DNA of 23,224 nucleotides from an uncultured Candidatus Melainabacteria bacterium (GTDB lineage: Bacteria; Cyanobacteriota; Vampirovibrionia; Gastranaerophilales; Gastranaerophilaceae). Position 1 is the stretch's first letter. Each line of letters starts with the position of its first letter. A program made the translations under genes and the position numbers. Positions 3,293 through 9,996 of the stretch are shown in pieces. The stretch covers positions 1 through 23,224 of the forward strand of contig CAKUZO010000025.1 in the NCBI GenBank assembly GCA_934717895.1, written 5' to 3'. Below the pieces are notes generated by a model. It was not told the origin of the DNA. It saw only the letters and a list, made by a program, of their open reading frames with translations, and did no database searches.

Positions 3293-3808
3293 TTATTCTT
3301 CCTCAAAATTCTCATCAAAGGCCGATTTTGGCGAGTGCTCTTTGATAATTTTATCGATTTCGTCACGTGCTTGCAATTTTGATGTAAGTTCAAGTTTGTC
3401 CAAATTGTAGGTTTTGCAAAGCTTTTCGTAATAATAAACTTGCTTTTTCGTCGGAGGTTCTTTGGACATTTTTACTTCACGCAAAAAAGCTCGTTTGCGT
3501 TTTTCATATTCTTTTTGTGCCTGAATAATCGGTTCTTGTTTTTTCTTGTAATCGTAGTATTTACGGCATTCTTTAAGATAGAGAGTCGTTTCTTTAAGAA
3601 AATCGTCGTTGTCGAGATAATCTTCTAAAAACTCAAAATGCGGATTGCCAATTTCGAGATAGTACCTTTCGTCTTCCAAAAACTTGTCTAAAATATCATC
3701 AACAGAAAGCTCCGGCGACTTTTTCACCAACGCACGGAGAAAGTTACACAGTGCCGATTTCTGGTTCTTTGTCATGTCGAGATAAATCTGGTTTTTAATC
3801 TGATACAT
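3293..3808 (-). CDS. Unknown protein upstream of prmC
   Basis: 171 residues if started at the ATG at 3806-3808, chosen because a good promoter ends just before it and no ribosome binding site supports the longer frame (which could extend to 3862). The protein is highly charged and helical. The last third holds PPTKKQVYYYEKLCKTYNLD and then a helix with ARDEIDKII; this 'T-KQ--Y---L' plus 'A---I--L' pattern resembles the small C-terminal helical module seen in several DNA-associated proteins (DUF3072-like), but I am not sure of it. No signal peptide or membrane span. It forms a two-gene operon with prmC. Probably a leaderless mRNA. Confidence 0.8.
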   Translation of the reverse strand: MYQIKNQIYLDMTKNQKSALCNFLRALVKKSPELSVDDILDKFLEDERYYLEIGNPHFEFLEDYLDNDDFLKETTLYLKECRKYYDYKKKQEPIIQAQKEYEKRKRAFLREVKMSKEPPTKKQVYYYEKLCKTYNLDKLELTSKLQARDEIDKIIKEHSPKSAFDENFEEE

Positions 3809-3815
3809 ACCAATT

Positions 3816-3843
3816 ATTTTAGTAAAAAAATGCTTTATTGCAA
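3816..3843 (-). promoter_or_regulatory. Promoter for the 3293..3808-prmC operon
   Basis: On the minus strand, TTGCAA (3838-3843), 16-base spacer, TAAAAT (3816-3821). Only seven bases separate the -10 from the ATG at 3808, so the transcript would start at or one base before the start codon. No ribosome binding site is present. Confidence 0.5.
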
Positions 3844-3898
3844 TAAGTAAGAAATTTAACAATTGTTTTTAAGATTTGTATATTTTCAATTTTTTTAA

Positions 3899-3954: not shown

Positions 3955-4821
3955 ATGAATAAAATTGTTTTTATTTTTAAACGACTTTTTTTAGCTTTTG
4001 CAATTTTAAGTTGCTGTTTTGTTTCATCAGGTTGTATTAACCTCAAAATCGCTGATGAATATACGATTAATTCGGATATGTCAGCGGAGCATAGTTTTGA
4101 GTATTTAGTCGGTAACAATCTTTATATGTTTGAGGAACAAATTGATGATTCCATTTATGAGCATTTAGAAGATGCAGGATATACTGATATTACCAATGTT
4201 CGTGACGAAAATTATTTTGGAATGAAAGGCTCGCAATATATCAATTCTTTTAATTTTGATAATGTAAAGCAAAATGATTACGTGCAAATTACAGATAATT
4301 CAAAAGATTATTATATTTTTAAATATATAAATATTGATGCAAATGTAAACCTTGATGAAATTCTTAATACCGAAGATGCTGACGGAATGGTATCTTTAAA
4401 CGAATATAAACTTACCATAAATTTACCGATCCCGTTTGTTAAAACGAATGCACAAAAAATGTCTGACGATAATAAGAGTGCAACTTGGTTGTTTTATCCG
4501 AATAATGATAATTTTATGCATTTTGAAGTTATAATGCCTAACCAAAAAAATATTAAAATTGCTTTGATTGGACTTGCGGGAGTTGTTGGGCTTATTATTC
4601 TGATAAAACTTTTGCAACTTGCTTGTGGAAATAACAAAAAATCATCAAGTGAGCAAAAAAATATTACCGAAAAATGTCCAAATTGTTCAACTCCGATTAA
4701 TGGGCAAGAAGAATTTTGTGGAAATTGTGGAACAAAACTTTATAAATTCTGCCCTCAATGCGGTCATAAAAATCTTACCAATGCAGATTTTTGCGAAGAA
4801 TGTGGAAATAAACTTGATTAG
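3955..4821 (+). CDS. Lipoprotein with membrane span and two C-terminal zinc ribbons
   Basis: 288 residues. A lipoprotein signal peptide (basic start, hydrophobic 10-24, lipobox SSGC with Cys27) is followed by an outer domain of about 175 residues starting INLKIADEYTINSDMSAEHSFEYLV; this opening resembles the DUF3153/LppM family of lipoproteins. A second hydrophobic segment (about 203-226) then crosses the membrane, and the C-terminus (about 240-288) has two zinc ribbons with pairs CPNC, CGNC, CPQC and CEEC. The zinc ribbons should therefore be in the cytosol while the N-terminal lipid anchors the outer domain. First gene of a three-gene operon with 4839..5762 and 5734..7833. Function unknown; it may sense something outside and signal inside, which is inference. 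Confidence 0.88.
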   Translation: MNKIVFIFKRLFLAFAILSCCFVSSGCINLKIADEYTINSDMSAEHSFEYLVGNNLYMFEEQIDDSIYEHLEDAGYTDITNVRDENYFGMKGSQYINSFNFDNVKQNDYVQITDNSKDYYIFKYINIDANVNLDEILNTEDADGMVSLNEYKLTINLPIPFVKTNAQKMSDDNKSATWLFYPNNDNFMHFEVIMPNQKNIKIALIGLAGVVGLIILIKLLQLACGNNKKSSSEQKNITEKCPNCSTPINGQEEFCGNCGTKLYKFCPQCGHKNLTNADFCEECGNKLD

Positions 4822-4838
4822 TGAAAAGGAAAATACAA

Positions 4839-5762
4839 ATGAAATGTCCAAACTGTGGAAATGAATTAAACCCAAATCAAAAATTTTGTACAAAATGCGG
4901 AAAAGAGGTTCCTGAAAATATTAGAATTCTTGAAAATGTTGAAAAAGATAGAAAATTAGAGCTTCAACAAAAAATTATTATACTTTTGGTTGCATTAATC
5001 GTTTGTTTTGTAGTGGCTTTTGGGGCTATTCATTTTATTGGAAACAGGTCAGATGTAGATATTCCTAATGAAAACGAAAATAATGTAGAAGACAATAATA
5101 ACCAGATTTTCGACAATTCTGCAAGAAATTGTGAAGATGTCGATGTTAAAAATTTAGTTTTAAATATTTATAAAGAAAATAATTATTATTATAAAGATAT
5201 AGACCCGACATCAATTAGTAAAATTTATTTGGCTTCTCCTGTCGCAACAAAATATGAACGCTCAATTGATAAATATAGTTGCAGAGGTTTTGTAACTTTG
5301 GAGGCTCCAAATGGGTTTAGACCTAAAAAATATGAATTCAGCAATAATTTTTATAGCAAAGTTCACTCTTATGAAACAATTGATAATGGAGTTCAAGTAA
5401 TTCAAAAAACGACAAAAATCCAATGTCCGGTAACGTATTCTTCTCAAATTTCTGAGGGGCAAGTTTCGGTTTATTCTTCATATTGTAATGGCGGCTCTTT
5501 TTACGATAACGGCAATACCGATATATTTACTTATGATGAAAACAATCCTTATTTAGAGGTTCCGGGCTCAAGAGCTCAAATTCAAAAAGAAGAAAGGGAA
5601 CGCAAACAAAGACTTGAAAAAGAACGGCAAGAAGAATTAAGACGCCAAAAAGAAGAAGCGCGCTTAGAACAAGAAAGAATTCGAGAAGAACAAAAAGCAA
5701 GAGAAAGATATAACAACTCAGAAGAAGGAAGATATGAAAATGCCGAAAAAGATTTGTTCTAA
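4839..5762 (+). CDS. Zinc-ribbon membrane protein with charged coiled-coil tail
   Basis: 307 residues from the ATG at 4839, which has an AAAAGGA ribosome binding site eight bases upstream; a GTG at 4821 overlaps the previous stop but has no such site. It opens with a zinc ribbon (CPNC at 3-6 and CTKC about 17-20), then a membrane span at about residues 43-64, then an outer domain of about 165 residues with four cysteines, probably disulphide-bonded, and ends with about 55 residues rich in E, K, R and Q that look like a single helix or coiled coil. The zinc ribbon resembles those at the end of the preceding gene, so the two proteins may have exchanged or duplicated this module. Its last 29 bases overlap the start of the next gene. 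Family not recognised. Confidence 0.85.
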   Translation: MKCPNCGNELNPNQKFCTKCGKEVPENIRILENVEKDRKLELQQKIIILLVALIVCFVVAFGAIHFIGNRSDVDIPNENENNVEDNNNQIFDNSARNCEDVDVKNLVLNIYKENNYYYKDIDPTSISKIYLASPVATKYERSIDKYSCRGFVTLEAPNGFRPKKYEFSNNFYSKVHSYETIDNGVQVIQKTTKIQCPVTYSSQISEGQVSVYSSYCNGGSFYDNGNTDIFTYDENNPYLEVPGSRAQIQKEERERKQRLEKERQEELRRQKEEARLEQERIREEQKARERYNNSEEGRYENAEKDLF

Positions 5763-7833
5763 AAATAAATTATTACTACTACTTGTTTGTGTGCTGTTTT
5801 TGCTTAGTATAAATTGTAATACAGTAATAGCAGAGGAAATTGATAATATCAGTGCAATTGAACAACAAAAACAGGAAAATATTACTTCAACTTCTTCTAT
5901 AACTATCAACAAAACTGATAAACAAAAGTATGACAAAATTTGCCAAAAAGCAAATTCTCTTGTAGATAAAAAAGAATATGATAAAGCTTCAATGTTACTA
6001 GAACAAGCTTTTGCGATAAATAAAGAATTAGATATGGCAAATGCGGTGTTGAGTAAGGTTTTTCTATGTCAAAATTTGAATGATGATAACGCAATGTTTT
6101 ATGCTCAAAAAGCTTTGAGTTATAATTCTGAAAATTATATTGCAAATTATGTTATGGGAAAAGTTTATCTAAGAAAAAATGATTTTGAAAAGGCTTTAAC
6201 TTATTTTAATAACGCAATTATTGCAAAACCGACTTTTCATGAGCCATTACTTGATATTGGAATTGTGTATTGTAATAAAAAAGATTATAACAAATCTGTG
6301 GATTATCTTACAAAATATCTTACAACAAATTCTGATAAAGAGAGGAGCGAACAAGCTTATTTTTGGAGAATGAAAGCATACTTGTATGGGAAAATTTCTT
6401 TTGATAATGCATTATCAGACGTTAATACGTTAATAAAGTTTGATAATAAAAATCCTGAATATTTTTCTTATAAAGGCAGGATTTATTCAGAAATGGCTAA
6501 TCACAGAAAAGAAGCACTTGGATTTGCCGATAAATCAATAAAAATGTCAAAAAAAGATAAAAATTTTGACATTTACGCAAATAAAATATATATCTATTCC
6601 AAAGTCACCCCAATAGCTTATGGTGTTATACCTGATATAGATATTGCATTAATTCTTGCCGAGAAAGATGCAAAAAAACTTACAGAACTTTGTCAAATTT
6701 TAGATGGTTATAATAATCGCTATTACAAAACTTTTAAGAAATACTCAGAAAGTTTGTTAGGAAAATTAGTCGAGGTTTCTCAAAAAACACTTGATGTTGA
6801 GCCTAATAACAAAGAAGTGTTGACAATTAATTTGAAAGCAAAAGCAGAATTTGAAAAATTAAAAATTTCTCAAAATAAGGTAAATTTACCATCATTAAGA
6901 CCGGTATCAAATACCACAAAGCTGACAACAGGGCCAATAATTTCTGCAACAAATACTAAACCTGTAAACACAAATCCGACTCCTGTAATTGCCAAGAGTA
7001 GCATTCCGAAAACAGCTCCAACACCTAAAACTGTTTCAGGCGTTGGAACCGGTACTGGTGTCGGAGCTGGAAGAGCAACAGGTGGACAAAATAAAAACGG
7101 GCGTCCGGGAATAGATTCAATGCCTGAAAAATTGTCGGCTCCAAGTTGGATTGATACCCAAAACCCGATAGGTCCAAAAGTTTATCTTGATGCAAACAGC
7201 CAATATTATTACGGTTGGGGTGCTGTTTATACTGTAAAATATATGAAAGACGGCAAACCAATGTTTACTCAAATAGAGTTAAAAGGTTTGAGAGGCAATA
7301 AGGCTGCAATTTTGTCAGTAGATAGAAATTTTAAAACTGTATATAATATTCCACTTACAAGAGATTATAAAAATATAACTCCCGATCAGGCAATTTATAA
7401 TAGTACCAAAATGGTGTTAAATAATACTAAAAAACAAACTTGCCCTGATTTTATCTGTAAAGCAGATTATGGAAATAGGATTTCCAAAAGTGAAACAGAA
7501 ATTGGGACTTACAATAATATTGATGCAGGGAAAGAGCCTGATTTTGGTCCATATATGCGAGAGTTACAAAGACGAATAAAAATGAACTGGGATCCCCCAA
7601 AAGGCAATGAAAGCAAACGTGTTGTTTTGCTATTTAAAATTGCAAAAGACGGAAGGCTTTTATCTTGCAGCGTATTCAAATCATCAGGAATTTCAAAAGC
7701 TGATAAAGCTGCAATTAGTGCTGTTATGGCAACAGCTCCGTTTAGACCATTACCGTCAGAATTTAAAGGTTCAAGTATAGATATTCAATTCACATTTGAC
7801 TACAATGTGTTTGGAGCTCAGGGGCGTTATTAA
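5734..7833 (+). CDS. Secreted TPR protein with TonB C-terminal domain
   Basis: 699 residues. An N-terminal signal peptide (basic start, hydrophobic run to about residue 25, probable cleavage after VIA) leads into TPR repeats at about 47-360 (for example ANYVMGKVYLRKNDFEKALTY). A Pro/Thr/Ser and Gly-rich linker follows at about 385-465, then a middle domain of about 110 residues with KVYLDANSQYYYGWGAVYTV, and a TonB C-terminal domain at about 608-695 (YMRELQRRIKMNWDPP, then VVLLFKIAKDGRL, and AAISAVMATAPFRPLP). TonB proteins energise outer-membrane transport, but no ExbB/ExbD or receptor gene is in this window, and with a cleaved signal peptide the protein would not be membrane anchored, so a classic TonB role is doubtful. 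Starts inside the previous gene, with GAAGGAAG before the ATG. Confidence 0.9.
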   Translation: MKMPKKICSKNKLLLLLVCVLFLLSINCNTVIAEEIDNISAIEQQKQENITSTSSITINKTDKQKYDKICQKANSLVDKKEYDKASMLLEQAFAINKELDMANAVLSKVFLCQNLNDDNAMFYAQKALSYNSENYIANYVMGKVYLRKNDFEKALTYFNNAIIAKPTFHEPLLDIGIVYCNKKDYNKSVDYLTKYLTTNSDKERSEQAYFWRMKAYLYGKISFDNALSDVNTLIKFDNKNPEYFSYKGRIYSEMANHRKEALGFADKSIKMSKKDKNFDIYANKIYIYSKVTPIAYGVIPDIDIALILAEKDAKKLTELCQILDGYNNRYYKTFKKYSESLLGKLVEVSQKTLDVEPNNKEVLTINLKAKAEFEKLKISQNKVNLPSLRPVSNTTKLTTGPIISATNTKPVNTNPTPVIAKSSIPKTAPTPKTVSGVGTGTGVGAGRATGGQNKNGRPGIDSMPEKLSAPSWIDTQNPIGPKVYLDANSQYYYGWGAVYTVKYMKDGKPMFTQIELKGLRGNKAAILSVDRNFKTVYNIPLTRDYKNITPDQAIYNSTKMVLNNTKKQTCPDFICKADYGNRISKSETEIGTYNNIDAGKEPDFGPYMRELQRRIKMNWDPPKGNESKRVVLLFKIAKDGRLLSCSVFKSSGISKADKAAISAVMATAPFRPLPSEFKGSSIDIQFTFDYNVFGAQGRY

Positions 7834-7958: not shown

Positions 7959-8144
7959 TTGCCAATTAACGTAAAAAAATATAGACTTCAAGCGAATATT
8001 TCGCAAGAAAAATTGTCTGAAATATTAGAAGTTAATAGCAAATATATCGGGCATGTAGAACGTTTTGAACGATTTATCAGTTTGAAAAAAATAATTGAAA
8101 TCGCCCAATATTTTGATGTTCCGGTTAAAAATTTTTTTGAATAA
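7959..8144 (+). CDS. Small Cro/CI-type helix-turn-helix regulator
   Basis: 61 residues starting at TTG (a stop codon lies one codon upstream, so no earlier in-frame start exists). The sequence KKYRLQANISQEKLSEILEV followed by NSKYIGHVERFERFISLKKIIEIAQYFDVPVKNFF is a nearly complete HTH_3 DNA-binding domain: helix 2 (ISQEKLSEILE) and recognition helix (NSKYIGHVERF) are clear. The usual first few residues of helix 1 are short, and AAGGG is 14 bases before the start, which is far for a ribosome binding site, so weak translation or a slightly shortened gene is possible. It ends one base from the stop of proA, which reads the other way. Target unknown. Confidence 0.75.
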   Translation: MPINVKKYRLQANISQEKLSEILEVNSKYIGHVERFERFISLKKIIEIAQYFDVPVKNFFE

Positions 8145-9461: not shown

Positions 9462-9758
9462 TTAATTGTAAAATAAATCTTGATAACCGGTTAAAACTCT
9501 TAAAACAAATATGTTTTCATTTTCTACACAATAAATAATTTGATAATGCTTTGCAACTACTAATTCTCTAATATTTCGTTTTAAAAGTTTTGATTTTCTA
9601 TAACCACTATTCGGAAACATTGATAATATTTTAAATTTTTCCTCAAATATATTTATTAATTCAATTGCTTTGGAAATATTATCTTGTGCAATATAATCAA
9701 ATATTTCTTGCATATCTGTTTCTGCAATCGCGGTAACAACAATATTTAAGTTACACAT
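9462..9758 (-). CDS. RelE/ParE-family toxin
   Basis: 98 residues, the usual size for the ParE/RelE toxin superfamily. N-terminal beta strand (NLNIVVTAIAE), helix with DMQEIFDYIAQDN and the second helix AIELINIFEEKFKILSMFP, then the characteristic GYRKSKL, IRELVVAKHYQIIYCVENENIFVLRVL strands and a C-terminal D-LF. The RELVV--YQIIY pattern is typical of ParE, which usually poisons DNA gyrase. Its ATG overlaps the end of the antitoxin gene by eight bases (antitoxin first), the standard arrangement. Which target it hits cannot be read from sequence. Confidence 0.88.
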   Translation of the reverse strand: MCNLNIVVTAIAETDMQEIFDYIAQDNISKAIELINIFEEKFKILSMFPNSGYRKSKLLKRNIRELVVAKHYQIIYCVENENIFVLRVLTGYQDLFYN

Positions 9759-9996
9759 ATTTTTTTCTCAAATCTTTAAATACTAAATCGCTGTTTCTAT
9801 AATTTCCATTTTGCATATCTTGCCAACCTTTTTCGATTTCTTCATTAAGAGTATTCAATTTTTCTTGGTTGACTTTATTATCAACAAATGCGAATTGGAT
9901 TGCAAAGGAAATTGCTTCGTCCATACTACTAAAAATTCCTTCAGAGATTTTTTCTTTTAAAATATTTTCAATATTGTTAGGAAGTGAAATATCCAT
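9751..9996 (-). CDS. ParD-like antitoxin
   Basis: 81 residues. The start MDISLPNNIENILKEKISEGIFSSMDEAIS is the ribbon-helix-helix DNA-binding pattern of ParD-type antitoxins (short strand, then two helices with G-F/Y-S-xxEAI). The remaining C-terminal part is acidic and would wrap the toxin. It would neutralise the 9462..9758 toxin and repress its own promoter. AGAGG ribosome binding site just upstream. The pair sits inside the proB-proA unit on the same strand. Confidence 0.85.
   Translation of the reverse strand: MDISLPNNIENILKEKISEGIFSSMDEAISFAIQFAFVDNKVNQEKLNTLNEEIEKGWQDMQNGNYRNSDLVFKDLRKKYV

What the first reader, a model, noticed from the sequence alone, without database searches (positions are those of the whole stretch)
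3955..7833. Coupled three-gene envelope operon with zinc ribbons and a TonB domain
Genes overlap or abut (17-base gap, then a 29-base overlap). The first two carry zinc ribbons on the expected cytosolic side of one membrane span and an outer domain; the third is a secreted TPR protein with a TonB C-terminal domain. A protein with cytosolic zinc ribbons, a membrane span and an outer domain could pass a signal or force inward to outward, in place of the missing ExbBD. No ExbB, ExbD or outer-membrane receptor is nearby. I know no described system with this set.
Basis: partly seen in the sequence, partly recalled or inferred. Interest (0 to 1): 0.7.

Follow-up and report, generated by a model that had tools for sequence, protein, structure and literature searches.

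The report
Zinc-ribbon-anchored, tagged split TonB-like module
Three linked genes of a gut bacterium related to the Gastranaerophilales may make an envelope complex in which a zinc-ribbon membrane protein, ending in a short conserved tail, works with a soluble protein that carries a borrowed TonB/TolA docking domain; the set recurs, shuffled and fused, in relatives.

Summary
In detail: three co-directional genes (3955-7833), 17-base gap, 29-base overlap; zinc ribbons on the expected cytosolic side of single spans in g1 and g2; g3 a secreted TPR protein with a TonB/TolA C-terminal domain (CTD). Relatives show a real but rare, shuffled module. In 3 of 383 genomes of the order with a strong g1 ectodomain match, g2 is in the same cluster, once fused to g1; in G345 g3's parts are separate neighbouring genes (TPR; Adhesin_E+TonB), in G269 TPR and Adhesin_E. 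New here: ORFs directly upstream of strong-scoring Adhesin_E-like genes end in a tail [D/E]x(1-2)LF in 15 of 19 cases (20 of 1642 ORFs overall). g3 does not stand 'in place of missing ExbBD' in the relatives: ExbD is in 116 of 117, and g3's CTD is 93% identical to an ExbBD-linked TonB. g3 reads as secreted, without an SxxxH anchor. TonB-dependent receptors (7 of 117) and TolB (0 of 60) are nearly absent. Best reading, inferred: a split, zinc-ribbon-anchored TonB/TolA-like tether whose docking domain is recruited through the tail. New variant of a known kind; function unproven.

The parts
3955..4821 (+). g1: lipoprotein-type ectodomain + C-terminal span + cytosolic double zinc ribbon
   Evidence: strong ectodomain matches in G345, G355, G269
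3955..4035 (+). g1 signal with lipobox ending at Cys27 (SSGC)
   Evidence: sequence; G26-C27 invariant between the window and P0002
4033..4554 (+). g1 ectodomain, probably LppM/DUF3153-like
   Evidence: g1 profile hits the L112 protein at 1e-21, which passes PF11353 DUF3153; L110 g1 matches PF21946 LppM weakly, 0.017; window g1 itself has no such hit
4558..4623 (+). g1 membrane span (by eye, approximate)
   Evidence: sequence
4675..4815 (+). g1 zinc ribbons (residues 241-262 and 266-287)
4839..5762 (+). g2: zinc ribbon - span - ectodomain - charged rod - C-terminal tail
4845..4898 (+). g2 zinc ribbon (residues 3-20)
4974..5036 (+). g2 membrane span (about residue 46 on), no SxxxH motif
5121..5513 (+). 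g2 ectodomain with four conserved Cys (98, 148, 196, 216); only weak, NTF2/cystatin-like fold matches
5568..5723 (+). g2 long charged helix (rod); model helix residues 244-292, block pLDDT 65 at its start and 81-93 for residues 251-300
5742..5759 (+). g2 C-terminal tail ...AEKDLF
5740..7833 (+). g3: signal peptide - TPR - TonB-like linker - Adhesin_E-like domain - TonB/TolA CTD
5740..5832 (+). g3 signal peptide (site ...VIA|EE; VTA|EE in P0008), judged by eye
   Evidence: sequence
5902..6834 (+). g3 TPR region (approximate), related to the separate TPR genes of L110 and L108
7045..7125 (+). g3 Gly-rich linker ending NGRPGIDS, like the linker of the L080 TonB (NGRPGIDA)
   Evidence: sequence
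7138..7449 (+). g3 Adhesin_E-like domain
7534..7830 (+). g3 TonB/TolA CTD, 92.8% identical to the TonB CTD of G006
7959..8144 (+). small HTH_3 protein directly downstream (possible regulator; membership in the module unproven)
   Evidence: PF01381 3.8e-8

Best explanation
The genes encode a split, zinc-ribbon-anchored TonB/TolA-like tether. SHOWN by sequence: g2 is a zinc ribbon, one span, an ectodomain and a long charged rod ending in a tail [D/E]x(1-2)LF that recurs in most of the proteins encoded just upstream of strong-scoring Adhesin_E-like genes; g3 is a TPR protein with a signal peptide, an Adhesin_E-like domain and a TonB/TolA CTD very close to the CTD of ExbBD-linked TonBs of relatives; g1 is an LppM/DUF3153-like ectodomain with its own span and zinc ribbons, fused to g2 in one relative. 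INFERRED: g1 and g2 form the inner-membrane part; g2's tail binds g3's Adhesin_E-like domain in the periplasm; g3's CTD then docks on whatever the resident TonB CTD binds. Anchor, rod and docking domain, which are one chain in TonB or TolA, are thus divided over two proteins. Because the anchors lack SxxxH, the tether is probably not driven directly by ExbBD but links, stations or competes at the resident machine's partner. What the zinc ribbons bind in the cytosol is unknown.
Against: No binding or complex was tested; no multi-chain model could be run. The tail lies in an overlap with the next gene in nearly all cases, so part of its conservation may be shared ancestry or translational coupling; several of the 15 are close copies (L009, L011, L195, L197). 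Of the 18 tailed proteins of these loci only 12 show a ribbon motif; L190, L205 and L206 have a span but no ribbon, and L170, L198 and L203 are ORFs without either. L205 and L206 precede Adhesin_E genes without a TonB CTD; L014 is followed by a TPR-PDZ protein; g2 of L110 and L109 has no tail. Of the 18 genomes with a g2 match, 8 have an Adhesin_E or TonB-CTD gene nearby and 10 do not, four of these 10 on short contigs or at contig ends. g3's Adhesin_E-like domain has no direct Pfam hit. The set was not found at the prmC site of the five nearest genomes.
Confidence: 0.37

Rival explanations
1. g3 is a soluble TonB mimic: a secreted decoy or regulator that occupies the resident TonB's partner, with g1 and g2 as co-expressed but physically separate sensors or regulators.
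For: g3-type proteins look secreted and lack an SxxxH anchor (by eye); g3's CTD is 92.8% identical to a resident TonB CTD, with 36 synonymous against 7 nonsynonymous codon differences to L080, which suggests purifying selection.
Against: Strong-scoring Adhesin_E genes sit behind tailed, mostly span-bearing proteins; g1-g2 fusion; a chain with ribbon-like motif, span and TonB CTD exists.
Confidence: 0.22
2. A variable accessory island of envelope proteins (lysozyme-inhibitor-like and other ectodomains) shuffled by recombinases; neighbours are exchanged as cassettes and the genes need not form one complex.
For: Patchy distribution; recombinase- or integrase-like and HTH-like genes beside many loci (by eye); a LprI ectodomain on a zinc-ribbon-span protein in L011 (PF07007 5.3e-10).
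Against: Fusions between the same partners (L109; window g3 against L108) and a tail shared across different ectodomains point to interaction, not only exchange.
Confidence: 0.22
3. One reading: zinc ribbons pass a signal or force from cytosol to envelope in place of ExbBD.
For: Topology and cluster conservation.
Against: ExbD in 116 of 117 genomes of the order; no SxxxH motif in the 12 tailed anchors examined; no motor or enzyme seen in the module.
Confidence: 0.09
4. The tail is only a by-product of a conserved overlapping start (translational coupling), with no binding role.
For: Nearly all tailed genes overlap the next start in the same frame relation.
Against: Synonymous-only variation of L and F in the upstream frame; L108 keeps ENDLF without overlap; one overlapping pair has no tail (L088).
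Confidence: 0.1

Closest known systems
TonB-ExbB-ExbD
   Same: g3's CTD is a TonB/TolA CTD, nearly that of resident TonBs of relatives; g2 has a long spacer before its end, as TonB has (recalled)
   Different: No SxxxH anchor on g3 or on the tailed anchors examined; docking domain on a separate soluble protein; few TonB-dependent receptors in the order (7 of 117)
TolA of Tol-Pal
   Different: No TolB in 60 of 60 genomes; rod and CTD on different proteins; zinc ribbons
LppM / DUF3153 proteins (PF21946, PF11353)
   Same: g1 ectodomain by profile chain; lipobox plus C-terminal span
   Different: Window g1 itself gives no LppM/DUF3153 hit; C-terminal double zinc ribbon
Zinc-ribbon single-span envelope proteins such as S. 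aureus TcaA and B. subtilis YvbJ (architecture recalled; TcaA named a zinc ribbon protein in one passage of PMC10611510)
   Same: N-terminal zinc ribbon, span, outer domain (g2)
   Different: TonB/Adhesin_E partner and the LF tail; no sequence relation was tested
Surface-adhesin protein E family (PF16747; H. influenzae protein E)
   Different: Here joined to TPR and TonB CTD, and paired with tailed proteins

Membership tests
TonB (energy transducer) | TonB/TolA-fold C-terminal domain | tested here: met
TonB (energy transducer) | N-terminal membrane anchor with SxxxH (motif meaning recalled) | tested here: not met
   13 of 13 resident TonBs have it, 0 of 12 tailed anchors examined (12 of the 18 tailed proteins); g3's N-terminus, printed in the same call, reads as a signal peptide without it
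TonB (energy transducer) | ExbB/ExbD genes adjacent | tested here: not met
   no match among 24 window ORFs scanned; present elsewhere in relatives
TonB (energy transducer) | TonB-dependent receptors as partners | tested here: inconclusive
   Plug over cut-off in 7 of 117 order genomes; window genome not held
Tol-Pal (TolA) | TolB partner | tested here: inconclusive
   0 of 60 order genomes; own genome not held
Tol-Pal (TolA) | single chain anchor-rod-CTD | tested here: not met
   g2 has anchor and rod, g3 has the CTD
LppM/DUF3153 | ectodomain profile match | tested here: inconclusive
   no direct hit of g1; chain through L112 and weak L110 hits
Adhesin_E (PF16747) | profile or fold match of g3 7138-7449 | tested here: inconclusive
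Zinc ribbon proteins | CxxC...CxxC ribbons above Pfam cut-off | tested here: met
   PF13240 43.1 bits (g1) and 33.5 bits (g2), cut-off 25
Zinc ribbon proteins | zinc binding | not testable with these tools
   needs metal analysis
Known anti-phage systems (PADLOC) | any model match at E<=0.01 | tested here: not met
   0 hits for g1, g2, g3 and ORF 3293-3862

The most novel reading that the evidence does not exclude
A bipartite TonB/TolA-type trans-envelope machine: interchangeable, mostly zinc-ribbon-anchored proteins carry a C-terminal [D/E]x(1-2)LF address tail that recruits soluble Adhesin_E proteins, which deliver a TonB/TolA docking domain grafted more than once from the resident TonB, in a bacterial order that keeps TonB-ExbB-ExbD almost universally yet almost lacks TonB-dependent receptors and TolB.
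Probability: 0.3. Interest if true: 0.8.

Novelty: new variant of a known kind. Interest (0 to 1): 0.6.

Why it matters
It would show that the anchor, spacer and docking domain of TonB/TolA-type machines can be divided between proteins and rejoined through a short C-terminal tail, linking cytosolic zinc ribbons to the outer envelope. It also raises a testable question: what does the TonB-ExbBD machine of these gut bacteria act on, if receptors and TolB are nearly absent? The reuse of its CTD on TPR/Adhesin_E, DnaJ and zinc-ribbon-like proteins offers baits to find that partner.

Tried and rejected

Limits of the tail counts. The 'weak' control is small: 14 weak Adhesin_E hits, 5 with an upstream ORF, 0 tailed, and 2 of those 5 (L113, L115) are locus-end pieces of a strong-class gene, so only 3 are true controls. 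The 15 of 19 becomes 15 of 20 if the untailed TPR gene before the L108 Adhesin_E gene is counted, which was cut off in the row the script kept. Rows are distinct by their last 60 residues, so close copies remain. The 1642 background ORFs come from loci brought in by zinc-ribbon, Adhesin_E, TonB, Plug, PrmC and similar queries, not from a random sample. A Fisher test (4.9e-29) ignores this relatedness and is not used. Of the 30 loci that the Adhesin_E profile itself brought in (L187-L216), 13 have a tailed ORF directly upstream, 4 (L188, L191, L192, L196) belong to an element whose tailed g2 lies one gene further upstream, and 13 have none. In one search the two junctions of L131 and L014 were added by hand because they are tailed; of the 14 distinct junctions found through Adhesin_E genes, 13 have LF.
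Full report
WHAT IS THERE. g1 has a lipobox (SSGC), an ectodomain, one span and two C-terminal zinc ribbons; g2 has an N-terminal zinc ribbon, one span, an ectodomain with four conserved Cys, a long charged helix and a tail ...AEKDLF; g3 has a signal peptide (by eye), TPRs, a Gly-rich linker, a roughly 105-residue domain and a TonB/TolA CTD. Flanks look like ordinary chromosome: prmC, proA, an AA_kinase+PUA gene (proB-like), a UvrD-type helicase, adenylosuccinate lyase, rubrerythrin, Hsp70. None of 24 window ORFs scanned matched ExbB, ExbD or a receptor. The four best contig matches of g2 are MAGs titled Candidatus Gastranaerophilales; 'the order' below is that of G006, the genome of one of them (L003). 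The window's own genome is not held.

CONSERVATION. g1 was searched in 383 genomes of the order: 202 match at E<=1e-3; among the matches listed (the list was cut) nearly all lie over the ribbons, 3 are strong over the ectodomain (G345 1.7e-56, G355 8.9e-51, G269 5.0e-40) and 2 weak (G024, G324). g2 was searched in 367: 18 at E<=1e-9, including those 3. In G345 (L108) the order is g2 - TPR protein - Adhesin_E-like protein with span - Adhesin_E+TonB protein - g1 - TPR protein; in G269 (L110) g2 - TPR - Adhesin_E - g1; in G355 (L109, a 5.5-kb contig) g1 and g2 are one 565-aa ORF. The TPR part of g3 is related to the separate TPR genes (27% over 351 residues, 6.8e-23, L110; 29% over 190, 2.6e-14, L108). 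So window g3 unites what are separate neighbouring genes elsewhere, and g1 and g2 are united in G355. The more distant G024 (L112) has a DUF3153-type protein and, one gene further, an Adhesin_E+TonB gene (PF16747 2.3e-13, PF13103 1.7e-11). Against: of the 18 genomes with a g2 match, 8 have an Adhesin_E or TonB-CTD gene nearby (G006, G007, G044, G184 with near-identical loci; G345; G269 and, weakly, G020 with Adhesin_E only; G008, matched only by its ribbon part), 10 do not, four of them on short contigs or at contig ends. The prmC regions of the 5 nearest genomes lack the set. It is an accessory, patchy module.

THE TAIL. Zinc-ribbon-span ORFs with a TonB-CTD gene directly downstream all ended in LF (6 of 6; 7 of 153 others). 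Starting instead from Adhesin_E genes over all held loci: 21 distinct strong hits (60 bits or more), 19 with an upstream ORF in reach, 15 of these ending in [D/E]x(1-2)LF(N); 20 of 1642 distinct ORFs of 100 aa or more have the tail at all. The weak-hit control is thin: 0 of 5, of which only 3 are true controls (see Tried and rejected). In the 30 loci brought in by the Adhesin_E profile alone, 13 have a tailed ORF directly upstream, 4 one gene further, 13 none. Of the 20 tailed ORFs, 15 lie directly before an Adhesin_E gene, 3 (L108, L131, L014) are related zinc-ribbon proteins with a TPR, TonB-PDZ or TPR-PDZ gene next, and 2 (L102, L106) are unrelated. Of those 18, 12 have a ribbon motif and a span, 3 (L190, L205, L206) a span only, 3 (L170, L198, L203) neither in that ORF. 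Their ectodomains differ: g2-like, TPR (L204), none but a rod (L200), and others. Single-linkage BLAST joined 15 of them in one group, leaving L200, L204 and L205 apart, so how many are truly non-homologous outside ribbon and tail is not settled. In 16 distinct overlapping junctions (2 added by hand because tailed) 15 have LF, 14 as LF* and one as LFN*; the exception is an Adhesin_E/Adhesin_E pair. In the 14, Leu uses TTA (10) or TTG (4) and Phe TTC (8) or TTT (6), which changes the downstream gene's residues but not the tail. L108 keeps ENDLF before a non-overlapping gene. This argues for selection on the tail of the upstream protein, though coupling of translation may add to it.

THE TonB DOMAIN. 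Two relatives inspected have a tonB-exbB-exbD-exbD operon (L080, L082); L080's four genes are confirmed by Pfam. Of 15 genomes searched with the L080 TonB, 13 have a full-length TonB, G355 only a 104-residue CTD piece (treated as resident in the tree), and G004 only its module gene. ExbD is in 116 of 117. The g3 CTD is 92.8% identical to the TonB CTD of G006 and 86.3% to that of its sister P0008; the tree joins g3 with P0008 (89/85) within an unresolved group of resident TonBs; the CTD of a DnaJ-TonB protein of G008 joins G008's own TonB (99/96); that of G345's Adhesin_E+TonB protein is nearest to G345's own TonB (80.4%), weakly supported. The modules of G006, G007 and G008 have divergent CTDs (34-38% to their own TonB) and those of G001, G002, G003 and G005 are intermediate (55-63%). 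Against L080, the window CTD has 54 identical, 36 synonymous and 7 nonsynonymous codons. All 13 resident TonBs examined carry SxxxH in the span; 0 of 12 tailed anchors do (12 of the 18). TonB-dependent receptor plugs pass the cut-off in 7 of 117 genomes (8 at E<=1e-3) and TolB_N in 0 of 60; in both searches E. coli, Caulobacter and Bacteroides ring among 14 controls. Hence the CTD's natural partner in this order is mostly neither.

READING. The mechanism that best uses all of this is a split tether: zinc-ribbon anchor, span, spacer and tail in one protein; Adhesin_E-like receiver and TonB/TolA CTD in another; g1 as a second ribbon-anchored ectodomain. A protein with ribbon-like motif, span and TonB CTD in one chain (L085, 189 aa) and one with ribbon-like motif, span, rod and tail only (L200) look like intermediates; both ribbons score below Pfam's cut-off. 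Shown: architecture, cluster conservation, fusions, tail association, CTD kinship, lack of SxxxH. Inferred: binding of tail to Adhesin_E, docking on the resident TonB's partner, and any effect on it. Not known: what the ribbons bind, and the biological role; one LprI-type (lysozyme inhibitor) ectodomain in a sister locus (L011) hints at envelope protection in the gut, no more.

VERDICT. Observation confirmed; interpretation partly supported. No description was found in eight searches of the paper library; most subscription papers are not held there. New variant of a known kind (TonB/TolA-type trans-envelope proteins), interest 0.6.

Noticed in passing
L080:6675-9462, L082:5519-8333; order-wide: Resident tonB-exbB-exbD-exbD operon (ExbD in 116 of 117 genomes) in an order that almost lacks TonB-dependent receptors (7 of 117) and TolB (0 of 60): what it drives is unclear. 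In L082 large proteins that look AsmA/TamB-like by eye flank it (not tested).
   Followed up: partly
L084:6146-7093 and L085:5926-6495: TonB CTD on a DnaJ protein (PF00226 1.1e-8) and on a protein with a sub-threshold zinc ribbon and a span; a protein in L165 that looks WG-repeat-like by eye carries one too.
   Followed up: partly
L209, L210, L213, L215, L216: A second class of Adhesin_E+TonB genes beside a 63-aa gene that reads like ribosomal protein L28 (by eye), without tailed upstream genes; tandem copies in L213 and L216.
   Followed up: partly
L001, L005, L008, L011, L014, L131, L135, L195, L197, L199: Related loci often lie near recombinase/integrase-like genes, some also near HTH-like genes (by eye); a zinc-ribbon-span protein of L011 has an LprI lysozyme-inhibitor ectodomain.
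   Followed up: partly
L001:10986-12056, L135:10241-11527: Secreted-looking TonB-CTD+PDZ and TPR+PDZ proteins in such clusters; a PDZ domain could also be a receiver for a C-terminal LF tail.
   Followed up: no
window 3293-3862 (-): Gene without Pfam hit, kept next to prmC in 5 of 5 nearest genomes examined.
   Followed up: no
window 9462-9996 (-): ParE-type toxin gene (PF05016 2.9e-10) with an overlapping small upstream gene (9751-9996, no Pfam hit), perhaps its antitoxin, between proA and the proB-like gene.
   Followed up: no
window 7959-8144 (+): Short HTH_3 protein right after g3; HTH-like genes lie near several related loci too (by eye).
   Followed up: no
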